Below are positions 3,264 to 43,253 of a DNA stretch of 64,000 bases, piece by piece. Position numbers and translations under genes: made by a program. The notes below the pieces were generated by a model. It did no database searches, had not been told where the DNA came from, and saw nothing but the letters and a program-made list of their open reading frames with translations. Source of the DNA: Lysobacteraceae bacterium SCN 69-320 (GTDB lineage: Bacteria > Pseudomonadota > Gammaproteobacteria > Xanthomonadales > Rhodanobacteraceae); the NCBI GenBank assembly GCA_001725155.1, contig MEFP01000030.1, positions 310,001 through 374,000 on the forward strand, written 5' to 3'. The first letter of the stretch is position 1. Each line of letters begins with the position of its first letter.

Positions 3264-6200
3264 TCACGGCTGCATCAGATCGAAATCTCCGCCCAGCACG
3301 CGATCGAGCCGTCCGCTGCGCCAGCCGCGCACGGCGTCGCGGACCAGTGGCGTGGGCTGTTCCTGGTAGCGCCGGCACAGGCGCGATTCGATGTCGGCGG
3401 CTGCCGTCGTGCCGGCGACGCCGTCGGCGGTCACGCGCACGTGCAGACGCTGGCGCTCGGCCGGATTTGCATCGCCGCGTTCGAACACGTGCAGGCCGCG
3501 TTCGTCGCGCAGCGACTGCCACGCACCGAAGCCGGCGACGGCCAGGCGCAGCCGCGCCTGATCGCGGTCGTGCTCCAGGGTACGCACGCGCATGCCGCGC
3601 ATTTCGGCCCAGTCCAGATACATTTGCGTCAGGCGTTCGAACCAGGCGCGCGTGGACGCATTGACGCGGTCGGGGCTCAGCAGTTCGAGCTGGGCGTCTT
3701 CGGGCTCGGCGGCGAGTACCGCATCGACGGCGAGTTCGATCAGATGCAGGCGCAGCGCGAGGCGGCGCACGACGTCGAGCACGCCGCGGCCGCCGCCGGT
3801 CAGGCGCTGCAGCAGCGAATCCGCGCCGCGCACGGCGTTCTCGATGCGATCCATGCGTTCCAGGGTGTCGAGCACGCGCTGGCGCCCGGCGCTGTTCCAG
3901 AAATCCGCCGCCTGCATGGCCGCGGCAGCCTGGTCCTTCAGCGCCTGCCAGCCGGCGCCGGCCACACGCTGTTCGCTCGCGGCCAGGGCTGCCTGCAGCG
4001 CCGCACGCGCGCTTGCATCGGCGGCCGGATCCAGCGCAAGCGCGCGCAGGTCGGCGCGTGCCGGCGAGATCGCCGCCACCGGCGGCGGCAGGCCGGCGTC
4101 GGGATCGACGAAGCGCACATGCAGGCCGTCGCCGGCGCCGGTCACGAACAGGAACTGGCCGCCGCTCGGCACACGGTTCTCGACGATGGTGCGCGACAGC
4201 GGCGCCAGCAGGTGCTGGTCGATCGCGCGGCGCAGCGGGCGGGCGCCGAGGTCGGGCGTGAAGCCGCGCTCGAGCAGGAAATCCACGGCCGAGGATTCCC
4301 ATTCGACCGCCCAGTCGCGCGCGCGGAAGCCGCGCCGCGACAGCACGAGGTCCAGTTCCTTGTGCAGGATGTCGCGCATGACGGTGCGCGACAGCGGCTG
4401 GAACACGACGATGCGGTCGAGGCGGTTGAGGAATTCGCGGCGGAACGTCGCGAACAGCGCGCGCTCGGCCTCGCCGCGCGCCGAGGCGTCGCTGGCCGCG
4501 ACGAAGCCCGGCCCTGCGCGCGTCACCGTCGAGCCGACGTTGCTGGTCAGGATGATCAGGCTGTGGCGGAAATCCGCGGTGTTGCCCTGACGGTCGGTCA
4601 GGCGGCCGTCGTCGAACAGTTGCAGGAACAGATCCCAGACGCGCGGATGCGATTTCTCGAACTCGTCCAGCAGGACGACCGCGAACGGCGTCTGGCGGAT
4701 GCGGCCGGTCAGCGAGGCGCTGCGCTCGCCGCTGCCTTCGTCGATCAGGCGCCAGTACGCGTCTTCGGACTGGTATTCGCTCATGTCAAAGCGCAGCAGC
4801 TTGTCGCGCGAGCCGAACAGGTATTCGGCCAGCGCCTTGGCCAGCTCCGTCTTGCCGGTACCGGTGGGACCGGCGAACAGGAACACGCCGAGCGGCCGCT
4901 GCGGATCGGTCAGACCAGCCTTGAGCATGCTGATGCGGTCGACCAGCGCATCGACCGCTTCGTCCTGGCCGATCACGCGGCGGGTGAAGAACTCGCGCAC
5001 CTGGGCCAGCGCCAGATGCGCGCCGCCGTCGAGGATGTCCAGCGGCAGGCCGGACTGCGCAGCCAGCGTCGCGAGCACCTGGGTGCGGCTCAGCGGCAGC
5101 GCCGGCGGATCGACCTGCGCGGCCGCACGCAAGGTCTCCTGCAGCAGGCGCAGGCTGCGGCCGGGTTCGGCACGCTCGGGGAACTGCTGCGCGGCCAGGC
5201 TCATGGCTTCGGCGATCAGTTCAGGCGCAGCGACCTCGACGCCGTGCCGCTCGCGCGCCTGCCGCACCCAGGTGTCGGCGAGTTCGCGGGTTGCGGCAGC
5301 GTCCAGCGCATCGACCGTCAGGCCGGCAGTCAGATGCTGGATGCGCGGACGCTGCGCGAGCACGCGGCTCCAGGCATCGCGCGAACTTTCACCGATCAGC
5401 TGGATCTCGCGCTTTTCCAGATGCGGCAGCAGCAGATCGAGTATGCCGGTCGGGTCGCTGGTCGTGCGGCCCTTCTCCAGCAGCTGATGCGCCTCGGGCA
5501 CGTACCAGATCGTGCGCGGCTCGCTGAGCGCGCGCACGAGCATCGCGACGCGGCCTTCCAGCTCGCCGATGTATTTCTGCCCGGCCAGGATCTGCGCCGG
5601 CGTCGCCTCGAACACGCGCCAGCCCTGGGCCGCGAGTTCGCGCAGGCACTGGCGGATCAGGGTCGTCTTGCCGCTGCCCTCGGGGCCGACCAGCACCGGG
5701 CTGGTGCGCGGCTCGCGCGTCAGCAGCGCGATCACCCGCTGGCGCGCCTGGGTGTCGGCCGGCGCGAGGATTTCGTCGGCGTCCGCATCCGGCCCGAGCA
5801 GGCGACCGATCTGCAGCAGCGCAGCCAGATCCTCGTTCGCACGCAGCAACTGGGCGACTTGAGACGCCAGCACCTCGCCGCGCAGATGGCCGCTGTTGCG
5901 CAGCCAGCCCTGCAGCGCGCGCAGGCGGTCGGGATCGGCGTCGGCGAGTTCGTCGCCGATGTCCGCAGTCGCCGGCAGCGCGTCGAAATAGCGCTGCAGC
6001 CCCGCGCGCGTGATCGGGTGGTCCACCCACCATTCGCTCATGCGCAGCAGCACGCCGGTCAAGGTCGCCGGATGCGGATGCGCGGCCAGATAGCCCAGCG
6101 CGTAGTGCAGGGTGAAATAGCCCATGCGATCGACCGTGCGCACGACGTCCAGCGGCACCACGTCACCGGCGCGGTGCAGCGCGACCAGCGCGGCGCTGCT

Positions 6201-6572
6201 CGGCGCGACGCCGCGCGACGGCACGGCTTCGAGCCGCTCGCGGGAGCTGAAATCGGCACCGGCCAGCAGCACGACGGCGGCCTGGAAATCCGGATTGGCC
6301 GCGAGTTCGTCCGGATGCTCGTACCCGTCGAGCTGCTCGCCAGCCCGGCGCAGCAGCGCATTCAGGCGCTCGCGCGGCGACAGCGGCGCGGCGGGTTCGG
6401 CGACGGCGGGCACGGGCTCCGGCGTTTGCACGGCAGCCGCGGCCGCCGGCGCCGCCACGGGCGGCGGCAATGCGGAAGGCGCCGGCGTGGAAGCCGCCGG
6501 GCGCGGCGCCGGACGCAGCAGCCAGGCCGCAAGGAAACCCAGAACGACGCCGATGACGAACCCTGCCAGCAT
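3264..6572 (-). CDS. Membrane-anchored ClpB-like AAA+ ATPase fused to a release-factor-2-like domain
   Basis: This 1102-aa protein starts at MLAGFVIGVVLGFLAAWLL, a single N-terminal membrane segment preceded by GGGAG; the reading frame extends upstream but without protein-like sequence. After an Ala/Pro linker and a helical region come two AAA+ modules. D1 has Walker A GPEGSGKTT (about 296-304) and pore loop GQKYIGELEGR, but its Walker B reads WYVPEAH where ClpB has FIDEIH. D2 is intact: GPTGTGKTE (568-576), LLDEFEKSH (634-642), TSNVGS, arginine finger FRREFLNRLDR, sensor 2 GARPLRRAI. Residues about 889-1102 align by eye with RF2 (DFWN...RVLDTLERM, MYLDWAEMRG, LRDERGLHVFER, RDAVRG...DFDLM) but skip the GGQ region. 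No ClpB N-domain or middle domain is evident. Probable role: a membrane-tethered unfoldase or remodeller; substrate unknown. Confidence 0.85.
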   Translation of the reverse strand: MLAGFVIGVVLGFLAAWLLRPAPRPAASTPAPSALPPPVAAPAAAAAVQTPEPVPAVAEPAAPLSPRERLNALLRRAGEQLDGYEHPDELAANPDFQAAVVLLAGADFSSRERLEAVPSRGVAPSSAALVALHRAGDVVPLDVVRTVDRMGYFTLHYALGYLAAHPHPATLTGVLLRMSEWWVDHPITRAGLQRYFDALPATADIGDELADADPDRLRALQGWLRNSGHLRGEVLASQVAQLLRANEDLAALLQIGRLLGPDADADEILAPADTQARQRVIALLTREPRTSPVLVGPEGSGKTTLIRQCLRELAAQGWRVFEATPAQILAGQKYIGELEGRVAMLVRALSEPRTIWYVPEAHQLLEKGRTTSDPTGILDLLLPHLEKREIQLIGESSRDAWSRVLAQRPRIQHLTAGLTVDALDAAATRELADTWVRQARERHGVEVAAPELIAEAMSLAAQQFPERAEPGRSLRLLQETLRAAAQVDPPALPLSRTQVLATLAAQSGLPLDILDGGAHLALAQVREFFTRRVIGQDEAVDALVDRISMLKAGLTDPQRPLGVFLFAGPTGTGKTELAKALAEYLFGSRDKLLRFDMSEYQSEDAYWRLIDEGSGERSASLTGRIRQTPFAVVLLDEFEKSHPRVWDLFLQLFDDGRLTDRQGNTADFRHSLIILTSNVGSTVTRAGPGFVAASDASARGEAERALFATFRREFLNRLDRIVVFQPLSRTVMRDILHKELDLVLSRRGFRARDWAVEWESSAVDFLLERGFTPDLGARPLRRAIDQHLLAPLSRTIVENRVPSGGQFLFVTGAGDGLHVRFVDPDAGLPPPVAAISPARADLRALALDPAADASARAALQAALAASEQRVAGAGWQALKDQAAAAMQAADFWNSAGRQRVLDTLERMDRIENAVRGADSLLQRLTGGGRGVLDVVRRLALRLHLIELAVDAVLAAEPEDAQLELLSPDRVNASTRAWFERLTQMYLDWAEMRGMRVRTLEHDRDQARLRLAVAGFGAWQSLRDERGLHVFERGDANPAERQRLHVRVTADGVAGTTAAADIESRLCRRYQEQPTPLVRDAVRGWRSGRLDRVLGGDFDLMQP

Positions 6573-9565: not shown

Positions 9566-10039
9566 TGCATGGCGACGCGGTTGCGGCGTGAACCGCAGCG
9601 GCAAACCGCGCCGGGCAGATCATCGCCCGGCGCGGATCCAGGCGGCCGGATCCCCGCCACCGGCTCCGCAAGCGAAGGATCCTGCCAACGGCGACTGGCC
9701 GGAGCCCGACGACGACCGCACAACCGTTTGCATCGAAGTCCGTGATGGCCGGTTCCATACTTTTCCGCTTCACCACAATGACAATCATGAACGGCACAGC
9801 GATGGGTCACGTCGCCCCGATTCGTCCTTGAACGTCGCAATCCATCTGTATAACCTGCAGCAAACGCACCAACCGTCGCCGCCCGGCGCCGGCGCAACCG
9901 GGGAAGGCCGCAACACAGCAAGCCATGACGGGCGCGGATGGCGCGCCCGGCAGCATGTGGACGGAATTCGTCCGCGACGGCAGTCTGCTGCCGCCTGCCG
10001 CCGCGCCATCACCGCCACCACAGCAGCGGGGTGAGTGCG
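9566..10039. other. 474-bp intergenic region before the GMC operon
   Basis: No supported gene. The strand-symmetric open frames here read as Arg/Ala-rich noise. It holds the candidate promoter listed at 9828-9854. Confidence 0.5.
9828..9854 (+). promoter_or_regulatory. Candidate sigma-70 promoter of the GMC operon
   Basis: TTGAAC and TATAAC boxes are separated by 15 bp, about 185 bp before the first gene of the operon. The spacing is two bases short of ideal, so this is a weak prediction. Confidence 0.3.
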
Positions 10040-11422
10040 ATGAAGCGCATGCGCAAAGGGGCGGTCATCAGCGGCGGCATCGCCGCGCTGGTGCTGGCGG
10101 CGAGCTGTTCGACGACATCGGTGAATCCCGGTCCCGTCGTGCCGCCGCCCATCGATCCGCCGGTCACGAACTGCAACATCACGCCGCCGACCACGGCCAT
10201 CACCCCGGCACTGCTGGCCAGTGGCCTGCCCTGCGACGCGACCATCGTCCCGCCGATCACCCTGGCCAATCTGCAGCACGGCTTCGACTACTACTCCTGG
10301 CTCACCTTTCTTTCGTTGAATGCACCCGCCGCCGGCGGCGTCATCGGCCAGGGCGCGCAGCCCGGCGGCGACGCGGCGACGCAGTGGGAACAGTGGAAAG
10401 AACTTTCCGATCTCATGAAGCCCGGCGGCGCCGCGCCGGGCGCCTGGGACGCGCCGCGCACGATCCCGGCCGCGTGTCTGGCGCTCGGTGCGAACAAGGG
10501 TTCGCGCGTGCTCAGCATGGTCGGCAAGACGCCGGACCTGCTCTCGGCCACGGTCGAGCCGTTCGATACCGGCCCGCTGATCGACCAGCACGGCCGCTAC
10601 GTGCGTTACGAGATTCTCGTGAACCGGCCGATGTTCGAATACATCGTGCAGAACGACCTGTACAGCAAGCAGGGCCAGAGCGCGTTCACGACCACAGTCG
10701 ACTTTCCGTCGGGCACCGTCGCCGGCGGCAGCAACGGCACGACAGGCGCGATCATGGTCAAGGCCGCCTGGATGGTGCTCGGCGACGGCGACGATGCGAC
10801 CGCGTTCCACACCACGCGGGCGTTCGTCTACACGGCGCCGCAGCAGAATCCGCGCATCGAGGAATCCTGCACGACGGCAACCCTGGGCCTGGTCGGCCTG
10901 CACGTCGCACACAAGACCGCCGGCGCGCCGCAATGGATCTGGTCGACCTTCGAGCACGCGGCGAACGCGCCCGAGCAGGCCGACATCGACAACGGCAAGC
11001 TGCGGCGGCGCTACAACTTCTATCGCGCGGGCTGCAGCGGCTGCGCGGCCAACGAACCGCCGCCGCGGCCGTGGAACCCGAACGTGCAGCCGTTCGCGAA
11101 CGGTTTCACCAGCCAGATCGTGCGCGTGACGCCGATCACCGCCGAGACGGGCGCACTGACGCGCGCGTTCACCGGGCTGCTCGCGAACACGGTCTGGCAG
11201 AACTATCTGCTGGTCAGCACGCAATGGCCGACCGATCCGCAGAGCAAGACCGATCCGAACGGCGTGCCCGCACCGATGTATCTCGCCAACAGCACGCTGG
11301 AAACCTATATCCAGGGCAGCGTGCCGCAGTCCTCTTCGAGCTGCATGAACTGCCACGGCAATGCCGCGGCGACGACAGGCCGCACCTCGGACTTCACCTT
11401 CATCCTCGAACGCGCGCAGTAG
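10040..11422 (+). CDS. Lipoprotein with a C-terminal c-type heme motif (GMC operon)
   Basis: The chosen start MKRMRKGAVISGG gives a lipoprotein signal with lipobox LAASC, placing this 460-aa protein in the periplasm or outer membrane. The body has no domain I recognise. Near the C-terminus is one CMNCHG motif (CxxCH), typical of covalent heme c, close after SSSS and only about 20 residues from the end; another cysteine pair, GCSGCAAN, lacks the histidine. It lies directly before a small dehydrogenase subunit and a GMC flavoprotein, so an electron-accepting role for that enzyme is the simplest reading. A single heme is fewer than in the three-heme subunit known for related sugar dehydrogenases. 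Confidence 0.8.
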   Translation: MKRMRKGAVISGGIAALVLAASCSTTSVNPGPVVPPPIDPPVTNCNITPPTTAITPALLASGLPCDATIVPPITLANLQHGFDYYSWLTFLSLNAPAAGGVIGQGAQPGGDAATQWEQWKELSDLMKPGGAAPGAWDAPRTIPAACLALGANKGSRVLSMVGKTPDLLSATVEPFDTGPLIDQHGRYVRYEILVNRPMFEYIVQNDLYSKQGQSAFTTTVDFPSGTVAGGSNGTTGAIMVKAAWMVLGDGDDATAFHTTRAFVYTAPQQNPRIEESCTTATLGLVGLHVAHKTAGAPQWIWSTFEHAANAPEQADIDNGKLRRRYNFYRAGCSGCAANEPPPRPWNPNVQPFANGFTSQIVRVTPITAETGALTRAFTGLLANTVWQNYLLVSTQWPTDPQSKTDPNGVPAPMYLANSTLETYIQGSVPQSSSSCMNCHGNAAATTGRTSDFTFILERAQ

Positions 11423-11446
11423 CGCCCCGACACGGCAGGCAAGCCA

Positions 11447-11944
11447 ATGGCCAGCGACAGCATGTCCCAGTTCGTCAACCTGTCGGCGCTCTTGACCGGC
11501 ATCAGCGCCGACAAGCTCGTGCCGCCGCTGTCGCCGTCGCCGGTGCCGCAGCTGATCTTCACGACGGCGCAGCAGCGCGGCGGCGCCACGTTCGTCACCT
11601 TGCTGGGTGTCTACGCGGACGCGGTCGCGCAAGGCAGGACCGACGCGCAGATCGCCGCGGCGGTGTTTTCGGACAACGGCGCCGACGTCTGCTATCTCGC
11701 GCGCAGCATCATGCTGGCCTGGTATCTCGGCAGCTGGTACGACCCCAAGGTGCTGCAGGCCTACAACAGCGCGACGCCGCCGCCCGGACCGCCGGCCTCG
11801 ACCGTGCTGTCGTCCGAGGCCTATACGCAGGGCTGGGCCTGGAACGTGGCGCAGGCGCACGCCATGGGCTACAGCAACTACACCTTCGGCTACTGGGGCA
11901 AGCCGCCGCCGGCCCTGAGCGATTTCACGGGAGCCGCGTCATGA
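11447..11944 (+). CDS. Small subunit, sorbitol dehydrogenase-like family (GMC partner)
   Basis: This 165-aa protein matches the general pattern of the small partner of membrane-bound FAD sorbitol/sugar dehydrogenases: FVNLSALLTGI near the start, then a helical body with ARSIMLAWYLGSWYD and a C-terminal WNVAQAHAMGYSNYTFGYWG. In known complexes this partner carries a Tat signal that brings the GMC subunit across the membrane. No twin-arginine signal is visible here, even in the extended upstream frame. It begins 24 bp after the lipoprotein gene and overlaps the GMC start by four bases (ATGA), so translation is probably coupled. Confidence 0.8.
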   Translation: MASDSMSQFVNLSALLTGISADKLVPPLSPSPVPQLIFTTAQQRGGATFVTLLGVYADAVAQGRTDAQIAAAVFSDNGADVCYLARSIMLAWYLGSWYDPKVLQAYNSATPPPGPPASTVLSSEAYTQGWAWNVAQAHAMGYSNYTFGYWGKPPPALSDFTGAAS

Positions 11945-13812
11945 GCAGCGCACCGACCGTCTATGACGCCGTCATCGTCGGCGCCGGCGCGTCCGGCTCC
12001 ATCATCGCCAAGCAGCTCGGCCTGGCCGGCAAGAAGGTGCTCGTGCTCGAGGCGGGCGCCGGCGTGCCGCCGAACATCAATGCGTTCATGCAGCGCTTCT
12101 ACACCTCGGTCGCCAAGACGCCCGAGTCGCCGTATACGCCCGATCTGTTCACGCCGCCGGGCAGCGGCGATCTGACCGATCCGTCGACCCTGGCCGCCGG
12201 CCGTCCGACCGTGCTGACCCTGCGCGCGGACAACTGGCAGGACCCGCACCAGGCCTATCTGATCCAGCAGGGCCCGAAGGCCTTCGCGAGCACCTACGAA
12301 CGCGTCGCCGGCGGCACGATGCGGCATTGGCTCGGTACGAGCCTGCGTTTCCTGCCGAGCGACTTCGAGATGCAGACGAAGTACCGGCAGGAAGTCGACT
12401 GGCCGCTGAGCTATGCGGACCTCGATCCCTGGTACGGCGCAGCCGAGTCCGAGATCGGCGTGTCGGCGAATGCGGCCGAGCAGTCGTTCCTCGGCATCAC
12501 GTTCCCGCCAGGCTACAGCTATCCGATGCAGGCGATTCCGCACAGCCTCGTCGACGACGCCGTCGACGCGGCGACCCGGGGCATGACCTGGGAGGGGCTG
12601 CCCGTGAACGTGACCGGCACGCCGGCCGGGCGCAATTCGCAGCCGTACCAGAACCGCCGCGTCTGCGCCGGCAACACCAATTGCATTCCGATCTGCCCGA
12701 TACAGGCGAAATACGATCCGAGCGTCAGCCTCAATGCGGCACTGGACACCGGCAATGTCACCTTGTGGCCGCAGACCGTCGCGAGCCACGTGCGCATCGC
12801 CGACGACGGCACGGTCAGCGGCATCGACTACCTGCAGTACCAGCAGGTCAGCGGGCCGGCCACGGGCGGCGGCACCGCCGTGGGCAAGATCTACGTGATC
12901 GCCGCGCACGCGATAGAAACGCCGCGTCTGCTGCTGATGTCGACCAACGACGGCCGCTACCCGCACGGCGTCGCCAACAGCAGCGGCCTCGTCGGGCAAA
13001 ACCTCATGGACCACCCGCTGTACCTGGCCTGGGCGCTCGCGCCGCAGCCGGTATGGCCGTACCGCGGCCCGCTTGCGACCGCCGGCATCGAAAGCCTGCG
13101 CGACGGCGACTTCCGCAGCGAACGCGCCGCGTTCCGCATCGAGATCGGCAACGAGGGCTGGAACTTCGCGATCGGCGATCCGGACACGACGACCGTGGAC
13201 TTCATCAACGGCATGAACGCGAGCGGCCTGAATCCGCCGCCGGCCGGCGGCGCACCGGCGGCGCTCTGGGGCAGCGCCCTGGTCGCCGCGCTGAACGACG
13301 GCCTGTCGCGCCAGTTCCGCCTCGGCTTCCTCGTCGAGCAGTCGCCCGAGAGCAGCAACTACGTCAGCCTGTCCGACGAGCTCGATCCGCTGGGCCTGCC
13401 GCGGCCGGCGATCCACTACGACCTGTCGGACTACACCAAGAAGGGCTTCGTCGCCGCCAAGCAGGTCGCCGACGCGATCTTCGCCCGGATGGGTGCAACC
13501 CAGTTCACCACGGTGCCGGCCGAAGGGCCGACGACGTTCGATTACGTCGTCGACGGCCAGCCCACCCGCTTCCGCTACTTCGGCGCCGGCCACATCGTCG
13601 GCACCTACCGCATGGGCAGCGAGAAGAACAATTCCGTGGTCGACGCCGACCAGCGCAGTTGGGACCACCCGAACCTGTTCCTCGTCGGCAGCGGTACCTT
13701 CCCGACCGTGACCACGGCCAATCCGACCCTGACGATCGCTGCGTTGAGCCTGAAAACCGCAAAGGCGATCGTGGAACAGCTGAACCAGCCGTCAGGCGGT
13801 GCGGACCGGTGA
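11941..13812 (+). CDS. GMC family FAD oxidoreductase, sugar/alcohol dehydrogenase-like
   Basis: This 623-aa flavoprotein opens with the FAD-binding Rossmann motif VIVGAGASGSIIAKQLG (about 10-26). A cysteine-rich segment, CAGNTNCIPICPIQAKYD (about residue 240), resembles the site that holds a 3Fe-4S cluster in bacterial FAD-glucose dehydrogenases. The C-terminal GMC signature is present: GAGHIVGTYRMG with the catalytic-type histidine, and TTANPTLTIAALSLKTA with the asparagine. Together with the two genes before it, it forms a dehydrogenase complex that should pass electrons to the heme lipoprotein and on to the respiratory chain. The substrate (sugar, polyol or alcohol) cannot be read from the sequence. 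Confidence 0.92.
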   Translation: MSSAPTVYDAVIVGAGASGSIIAKQLGLAGKKVLVLEAGAGVPPNINAFMQRFYTSVAKTPESPYTPDLFTPPGSGDLTDPSTLAAGRPTVLTLRADNWQDPHQAYLIQQGPKAFASTYERVAGGTMRHWLGTSLRFLPSDFEMQTKYRQEVDWPLSYADLDPWYGAAESEIGVSANAAEQSFLGITFPPGYSYPMQAIPHSLVDDAVDAATRGMTWEGLPVNVTGTPAGRNSQPYQNRRVCAGNTNCIPICPIQAKYDPSVSLNAALDTGNVTLWPQTVASHVRIADDGTVSGIDYLQYQQVSGPATGGGTAVGKIYVIAAHAIETPRLLLMSTNDGRYPHGVANSSGLVGQNLMDHPLYLAWALAPQPVWPYRGPLATAGIESLRDGDFRSERAAFRIEIGNEGWNFAIGDPDTTTVDFINGMNASGLNPPPAGGAPAALWGSALVAALNDGLSRQFRLGFLVEQSPESSNYVSLSDELDPLGLPRPAIHYDLSDYTKKGFVAAKQVADAIFARMGATQFTTVPAEGPTTFDYVVDGQPTRFRYFGAGHIVGTYRMGSEKNNSVVDADQRSWDHPNLFLVGSGTFPTVTTANPTLTIAALSLKTAKAIVEQLNQPSGGADR

Positions 13813-43177: not shown

Positions 43178-43253
43178 TGGTGGGCCCACACGGATTCGAA
43201 CCGTGAACCAAAGGATTATGAGTCCTCTGCTCTAACCGTTGAGCTATAGGCCC
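43178..43253 (-). tRNA. tRNA with CAU anticodon, probably tRNA-Ile2
   Basis: A 76-nt cloverleaf including the encoded CCA can be folded. It has a 7-bp acceptor stem starting GGGCCTA, D arm AGCTCAACGGTTAGAGC, anticodon loop CTCATAA and T arm with GGTTCGAATCC. A CAU anticodon means initiator Met, elongator Met or Ile2. Acceptor positions 4 and 5 are both C, which fits the determinants for lysidine modification of tRNA-Ile2; an initiator would lack the first pair. The choice between Ile2 and elongator Met is likely but not certain. Confidence 0.9.

What the first reader, a model, noticed from the sequence alone, without database searches (positions are those of the whole stretch)
3264..6572. ClpB-like disaggregase fused to a GGQ-less release factor 2 domain, anchored in the membrane
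Seen: an N-terminal membrane helix, two AAA+ modules, and a C-terminal 214-residue segment that follows RF2 by eye in order (DFWN, MYLDWAEMRG, GLHVFER, the final DAVRG...FDLM), with the catalytic GGQ domain missing. D1 has a degenerate Walker B. Known: class 1 release factors bind the ribosome, and ClpB unfolds proteins. Inference: the domain may tether the ATPase to ribosomes, or be an exapted protein-binding fold; this would be a new link between translation and protein quality control.
Basis: partly seen in the sequence, partly recalled or inferred. Interest (0 to 1): 0.75.

Follow-up and report, generated by a model that had tools for sequence, protein, structure and literature searches.

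The report
Membrane ATPase carrying decommissioned release factor
Some bacteria related to Tahibacter make a membrane-anchored, probably ring-forming ATPase whose tail is a translation release factor that has lost both its stop-codon-reading and its peptide-cutting parts, which suggests that an old ribosome protein was reused as a docking arm for a protein-remodelling machine.

Summary

"ClpB-like disaggregase" does not hold: no M domain, no listed Clp N-domain, D2 pore-loop GYVG in 0 of 22, D1 Walker B aspartate lost in 22 of 22. D2 keeps its ATPase motifs.

Most likely this is a membrane-tethered Hsp100-type machine, powered by D2, with exapted RF2 domains as docking modules. The stop-codon-loop region is the tail's least conserved part and a C-terminal RRY..P..LVRD..RGWR.GR patch the most conserved, which favours a new interface over ordinary A-site docking. 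Ribosome tethering is neither shown nor excluded. My searches found no description in print.

The parts
3264..6572 (-). whole gene, 1102 aa plus stop: membrane-anchored Hsp100-type AAA+ with C-terminal RF2 remnant
   Evidence: orthologues
6513..6572 (-). N-terminal membrane helix (residues 1-20), followed by a basic residue, so the rest is predicted to be cytoplasmic
   Evidence: hydropathy; topology inferred from the positive-inside rule
6378..6512 (-). Pro/Ala-rich low-confidence linker (residues 21-65)
   Evidence: pLDDT <50 at 21-60
5793..6377 (-). all-helical N-domain (residues 66-260), no match among the Pfam families listed; found only in carriers of the fusion in the sample searched
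5073..5765 (-). AAA+ D1 (about 270-500): Walker A kept, Walker B Asp lost, pore loop GQ[KSR][YFH][IV]G kept
5487..5513 (-). degenerate D1 Walker B, TIWYVPEAH (354-362)
4155..5015 (-). AAA+ D2 (about 520-806): Walker A GPTGTGKT, Walker B LLDEFEK, sensor 2 GARPLRRA intact
4707..4757 (-). D2 pore-loop region (606-622), where the GYVG of the resident ClpB and ClpA is missing
   Evidence: GYVG 0 of 22
4023..4100 (-). variable linker (825-850) between D2 and the RF module
3708..4022 (-). RF2 domain 1 (851-955), helical, with the FW motif
3267..3707 (-). RF2 superdomain 2/4 (956-1102), PCRF match 975-1032, domain 3 (GGQ) missing between about 1050 and 1063
3276..3386 (-). domain 4 C-terminal patch (1063-1099), the best conserved part of the tail
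   Evidence: 18 of 37 invariant; signature in 21 of 21

Best explanation
A membrane-anchored, two-module Hsp100-class AAA+ machine whose C-terminal module is an exapted RF2: domain 1 plus superdomain 2/4, without the peptidyl-hydrolase domain and without the stop-codon loops. Shown here: the architecture, its conservation, RF2 homology and predicted fold, the absence of GGQ/SPF/GGTE at their sites, the loss of the D1 Walker B Asp, the loss of the D2 GYVG loop, and the intact D2 ATPase motifs. Inferred: it forms a hexameric ring as its relatives do; six N-terminal helices hold the ring with its N-domain side at the inner membrane; D1 binds ATP without hydrolysing it and grips the client with its retained pore loops; D2 hydrolyses ATP and drives remodelling; six RF2 modules hang from the D2 face into the cytoplasm on flexible linkers and serve as docking arms for a partner, chiefly through the conserved domain 4 patch RRY..P..LVRD..RGWR.GR. 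It does not release peptides or read stop codons. The partner is unknown; a non-ribosomal protein or RNA is favoured over the ribosome.
For: RF2 homology and fold. Same order of parts in the homologues read in full. The N-domain was found in 5 of 131 order genomes, all of them carriers of the fusion, as expected if the protein is inherited as one unit. Purifying selection on the tail in the four Tahibacter-group pairs, pN/pS 0.26-0.47. Absent decoding loops and low conservation there against the conserved domain 4 patch. An ordinary RF2, a second PCRF protein that I take for RF1, and RF3 are also in the genome, so this is a paralogue and not a replacement. Precedent that an SPF- and GGQ-less RF2 can be reused: PrfB3 (PMC5897788, passages).
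Against: No partner, client, oligomeric state or activity was tested. No conserved operon partner was seen that would name the process. The domain 4 patch lies in a part that also takes part in ribosome-bound RF2 (recalled), so its conservation could be a kept ribosome contact. Net charge of the tail is near zero in the three members counted (36/36, 35/36, 39/41), which argues for neither RNA nor ribosome. Outside the genus the selection measure is less clear: RF domain 1 pN/pS 0.73 in L050-L053, and 1.07 and 0.81 for the two tail parts between the window and L050. The full-length model is only moderate (pLDDT 76.9, pTM 0.41), so tail placement is inferred by analogy.
Confidence: 0.55

Rival explanations
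1. Ribosome tether: the RF2 remnant still enters or abuts the factor site (A site, L11/GTPase centre) or binds RF3, so that the membrane machine is recruited to ribosomes, for example stalled ones on membrane-protein mRNAs, to pull nascent chains or dismantle complexes.
For: RF2 domain 1 and superdomain 2/4 are both kept. The linker joins at the RF domain 1 end, which lies outward on the ribosome (recalled). RF3 is present. The domain 4 strand and helix motif is kept.
Against: SPF and GGTE are lost at their sites, the loop region is the least conserved part (2 of 31 invariant), the tail is near neutral, and no translation gene was seen as a conserved neighbour. Over the whole tail the model fits free RF2 (4.7 A) better than the ribosome-bound RF2 rows that align over the whole tail (7.8-9.9 A), though relative domain placement in the model is itself uncertain.
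Confidence: 0.3
2. Structural or regulatory cap: the RF2 fold only packs against the D2 ring or its neighbours, stabilising the assembly or gating its exit, and binds no outside partner.
For: C-terminal position next to D2; many invariant tail residues are core-type (my reading).
Against: A variable, low-confidence linker separates the tail from D2 (pLDDT <50 at 826-838), unexpected for a packed cap.
Confidence: 0.12
3. Chance resemblance, or a decaying appendage without function.
For: The single sequence finds nothing in the PDB by phmmer, the Pfam score is just above cut-off, and the resident RF2 is not among the matches that the first tail profile reports for its own genome.
Confidence: 0.03

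Closest known systems
Bacterial class 1 release factor RF2 (PrfB)
   Same: Homologous domain 1 and superdomain 2/4 in the same order, 21-25% mean identity to the 11 RF2s aligned, with shared core residues (FW or VW, MYxxW, G..A...L..E.G.H, R.Y)
   Different: No domain 3 or GGQ, no SPF, no GGTE loop; fused behind an AAA+ machine and a membrane helix
Arabidopsis PrfB3
   Same: An RF2 relative that lost both SPF and GGQ and was recruited to another job (petB 3' UTR binding; PMC5897788, passages)
   Different: A chloroplast RNA protector; the passages seen mention no AAA+ part; whether its domain 3 is deleted or only mutated was not checked
ClpB/Hsp104 disaggregases
   Same: Two AAA+ modules with ClpB-type D2 small domain; NCBIfam ClpB is the best family (314.9 bits against a cut-off of 1232.1)
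   Different: No M domain, no listed Clp N-domain, D1 Walker B Asp lost, D2 GYVG missing, membrane anchor, RF2 tail
ClpA/ClpC unfoldases
   Same: Two AAA+ modules without the long M domain (as in the resident ClpA); the best PDB matches of the whole model are ClpC; a G-[PMVA]-[GA]-F loop sits where the resident ClpA has IGFVA
   Different: D2 pore loop lost, D1 Walker B lost, tail and anchor; the loop is mostly Pro-Gly-Phe, not the [ILV]-G-[FL] ClpP motif (motif recalled)

Membership tests
Class 1 release factors | PCRF / domain 1 + superdomain 2/4 fold | tested here: met
Class 1 release factors | GGQ peptidyl-hydrolase domain 3 | tested here: not met
   GGQ in 0 of 21 tails; domain absent in alignment and model
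Class 1 release factors | stop-codon motif SPF (RF2) and GGTE loop (roles recalled) | tested here: not met
   SPF 0 of 21 tails; a GGTE string in 1 of 21, in the SPF-loop region and not at the RF2 GGTE site; sites replaced
Class 1 release factors | ribosome binding | not testable with these tools
   needs co-sedimentation or crosslinking
ClpB/Hsp104 disaggregase | two AAA+ modules with D2-small domain | tested here: met
ClpB/Hsp104 disaggregase | coiled-coil M domain in D1 | tested here: not met
   the long insertion of the resident ClpB is absent from the 7 members aligned with it
ClpB/Hsp104 disaggregase | Clp N-terminal domain | tested here: inconclusive
   not among the 25 best Pfam families listed; a helical domain of unlisted family stands there
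ClpB/Hsp104 disaggregase | D2 pore loop GYVG | tested here: not met
   0 of 22; both resident ClpB and ClpA have it
ClpB/Hsp104 disaggregase | equivalog score | tested here: not met
   314.9 against cut-off 1232.1
ClpA/ClpC partner of ClpP | IGF/IGL-type ClpP loop | tested here: inconclusive
   G-[PMVA]-[GA]-F at the aligned site in 22 of 22; binding untested
ClpA/ClpC partner of ClpP | ClpP association | not testable with these tools
   needs pull-down

The most novel reading that the evidence does not exclude
A membrane-tethered Hsp100 ring uses a disarmed RF2 to dock on ribosomes or on the termination/rescue machinery at the inner membrane, and pulls on or dismantles stalled translation complexes or their nascent chains: a dedicated bacterial membrane-side ribosome quality-control motor.
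Probability: 0.25. Interest if true: 0.88.

Novelty: new variant of a known kind. Interest (0 to 1): 0.62.

Why it matters
It joins two protein kinds that my searches did not find joined in print: a release factor and an Hsp100-type machine. The release factor lacks the motifs of both of its defining activities, and the fusion is kept in four family-level groups of one bacterial order. If the tail still meets the ribosome, it links translation to membrane protein quality control in a new way. If it does not, it is a bacterial case of RF2 exaptation beside plant PrfB3. Either way a tail deletion makes the question testable.

Tried and rejected
Chance resemblance: rejected. RF1 rather than RF2 ancestry: disfavoured; best RF2 chain 1.8e-12, best RF1 chain 3.7e-6; a profile-profile run against 8 RF2s of the order gave E 3.1e-9 over only 72 columns. 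The parallel "RF1" run (9.1e-8) is not used: its set of two held one mislabelled RF2.

Operon context: sought, none seen. Of 60 neighbour clusters listed I read sequences of 19; the large clusters C0, C1 and C3 I set aside by position as shadow or mixed frames without reading them. A MutS-like gene lies upstream on the same strand in 13 of 22 neighbourhoods (gap 50-109 nt in 7, 349 and 544 nt in 2, about 2 kb in 3, 3.5 kb in 1). Pfam confirmed MutS for one of the 13; the rest rest on clustering. In the other 9 it was not seen; three of these (L016, L017, L048) hold under 1.5 kb upstream. I take it as synteny, not function.

Donor and date of the RF2: not resolved. In a tree with 11 RF2s and 23 tails the two groups are split by a branch of 2.36 substitutions per site. 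30 ORFs were dropped there because my cutting pattern failed on them.

Defence system: the 7 PADLOC matches lie within AAA+ parts. Plasmids: no match. Phages: one weak record, E 3e-3, 29% of the query, not followed.

Outside the order: class (369 genomes) and phylum (398 genomes) samples at E <= 1e-15 gave only the own genome and G019, a genome of the same family. A class search with the full-length profile scored only two candidates per genome and is a weak negative. The single-sequence family search did not report G019 and G210, carriers of the same family that the profile found, so undercounts.

Literature: searches (318 papers, 20 listed; 28, 20 listed; 1; 0; 2; 0; 7; 9, 8 listed): titles and abstract starts only. 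Burroughs and Aravind review PMC6514570: abstract and passages for six terms ('clp' 0, 'pcrf' 0). No such fusion seen; most subscription papers are not held. PrfB3: search 47 and passages of PMC5897788.

A Pfam query on window 12036-13809 was in a wrong frame and says nothing.

Full report
The gene. The minus strand of 3264-6572 encodes an uninterrupted 1102-residue protein. The plus strand of the same stretch is also open in one frame, which I take for a GC-rich shadow frame. The nearest named species are Tahibacter aquaticus and T. harae (77% and 75% identity), which the genome search places in the same genus as the window (contigs of equal length). The order name Lysobacterales comes from record titles. 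The genome also has ClpB and ClpA-type proteins, an ordinary RF2 with SPF and GGQ, a second full PCRF protein that I take for RF1, RF3 and a 203-residue GGQ-bearing protein that looks like PrfH (name by eye). The fusion is therefore an extra protein.

Anatomy. The first 19 residues are hydrophobic (KD 2.47) and a basic residue follows. A hydrophobic N-terminus is present in 21 of 21 homologues with a complete N-terminus, weakest in L017 (1.05) and L049 (1.50); in L017, L048 and L062 an RF domain 1 helix scores higher. A Pro/Ala-rich linker and an all-helical domain (66-260) follow; the domain has no match among the Pfam families listed. Then come AAA+ D1, AAA+ D2 with a ClpB-type small domain, a variable linker and the tail. 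The 50 best PDB matches listed for the full-length model (pLDDT 76.9, pTM 0.41) are ClpC, ClpA and ClpB entries.

The motor. Aligned with the resident ClpB and ClpA, D1 keeps Walker A (22 of 22) and the pore loop GQ[KSR][YFH][IV]G. The Walker B aspartate is lost in 22 of 22 (Pro in 21, His in 1). The long M domain of ClpB is absent. D2 keeps Walker A, Walker B LLDEFEK (22 of 22) and sensor 2, and is the best conserved part in the four Tahibacter-group pairs (92-95% identity, pN/pS 0.08-0.15). But the GYVG pore loop of both resident ClpB and ClpA is missing (0 of 22). A loop G-[PMVA]-[GA]-F sits where the resident ClpA has IGF (22 of 22); whether it binds ClpP is open. So this is an Hsp100-class protein, but by the features tested not a ClpB disaggregase.

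What the tail has lost and kept. GGQ: 0 of 21 tails. SPF: 0 of 21. GGTE: one string in 1 of 21, in the SPF-loop region and not at the RF2 GGTE site. Invariant positions over 21 rows: loop region and deletion junction (1032-1062) 2 of 31; domain 1 from residue 884, 9 of 72; domain 2 core 14 of 76; domain 4 C-terminus 18 of 37. Some rows are close relatives, so these are not 21 independent tests. The signature RRY-x3-P-x2-LVRD-x2-RGWR-x-GR is in 21 of 21 tails. The tail is near neutral in the three members counted (36/36, 35/36, 39/41 K+R/D+E). I read this as loss of decoding and release, with a new or strengthened interface on the domain 4 C-terminus.

Distribution. With the first, 8-row tail profile 22 of 398 genomes of the order match at E < 1e-50 (weakest 1.3e-53); 355 of 398 have some match at E <= 0.001, and the further matches that are listed (3.7e-10 and weaker) lie in frames mostly of release-factor length; the 7 such loci labelled RF2 (L041-L047) carry SPF and GGQ. 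The resident RF2 of the window's own genome was not reported there. Two further genomes of the genus come from the family search (6 of 233), which did not report two same-family carriers that the profile found. So 24 genomes are known here, in four family-level groups. The whole architecture was read in 23 (two of them cut by contig ends); in G227 only the tail was seen, at a contig edge. Class (369) and phylum (398) samples gave no carrier outside the order at E <= 1e-15. The N-domain was found in 5 of 131 order genomes, all carriers. The picture is one unit inherited patchily within one order.

Selection. pN/pS of the tail parts is 0.26-0.47 in the four Tahibacter-group pairs, 0.26-0.40 in L054-L056 and L057-L060, 0.73 (domain 1) and 0.36 (domains 2/4) in L050-L053, and 1.07 and 0.81 between the window and L050; D1 and D2 also rise to 0.88 and 0.60 in that last pair, so I take it as saturation and composition bias (8 pairs).

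Neighbourhood. No partner conserved across families was seen (with the limits told under Tried and rejected). In the window the gene is flanked by an M19 dipeptidase (same strand, downstream) and a divergent reprolysin-type metallopeptidase. In 13 of 22 neighbourhoods a MutS-type gene lies upstream on the same strand, in 7 within 50-109 nt. Several upstream regions show a TAnACT-like element (by eye).

Mechanism. Shown: architecture, RF2 fold, losses, conservation. Inferred: a hexameric ring tethered to the inner membrane by six helices; D1 holds ATP and client; D2 provides the work; RF2 modules on flexible linkers dock a partner. I put docking to something other than the ribosomal A site at 0.55, ribosome or RF3 docking at 0.30, a structural cap at 0.12 and no function at 0.03. 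Precedent for the first: plant PrfB3, an RF2 relative that lost SPF and GGQ and protects petB transcripts (PMC5897788, passages).

Novelty. Searches of the open library (listings only) and a term search inside the release-factor evolution review PMC6514570 show no release factor-Clp fusion. Both parts are known kinds; the combination, the disarmed state and the anchoring are new as far as I could check. I file it as a new variant of a known kind.

Noticed in passing
window 4707-4757 (-), residues 606-622, and orthologues: The D2 pore loop GYVG is missing although D2 is the best conserved AAA+ module and the only one with intact Walker motifs; how such a ring would move a client is unclear.
   Followed up: partly
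window 4491-4523 (-), residues 684-694: A G-[PMVA]-[GA]-F loop sits where the resident ClpA has its IGF loop; a possible relic or variant of ClpP binding.
   Followed up: partly
L050-L063: A MutS-type gene lies upstream of the fusion gene on the same strand in 13 of 22 neighbourhoods, in 7 within 50-109 nt.
   Followed up: partly
window 9938-11944 (+): Two adjacent frames (494 and 165 aa) without a Pfam match at 1e-5; the first holds a CxxCH heme-type motif (CMNCH) near its end. One gene split by a frameshift, or two genes.
   Followed up: no
L111 (G000 contig 5, 80300-83300): The genome also encodes a 203-aa GGQ-bearing protein that looks like PrfH.
   Followed up: partly
window 43178-43253 (-): The only tRNA found in the window, tRNA-Met (cat).
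   Followed up: no
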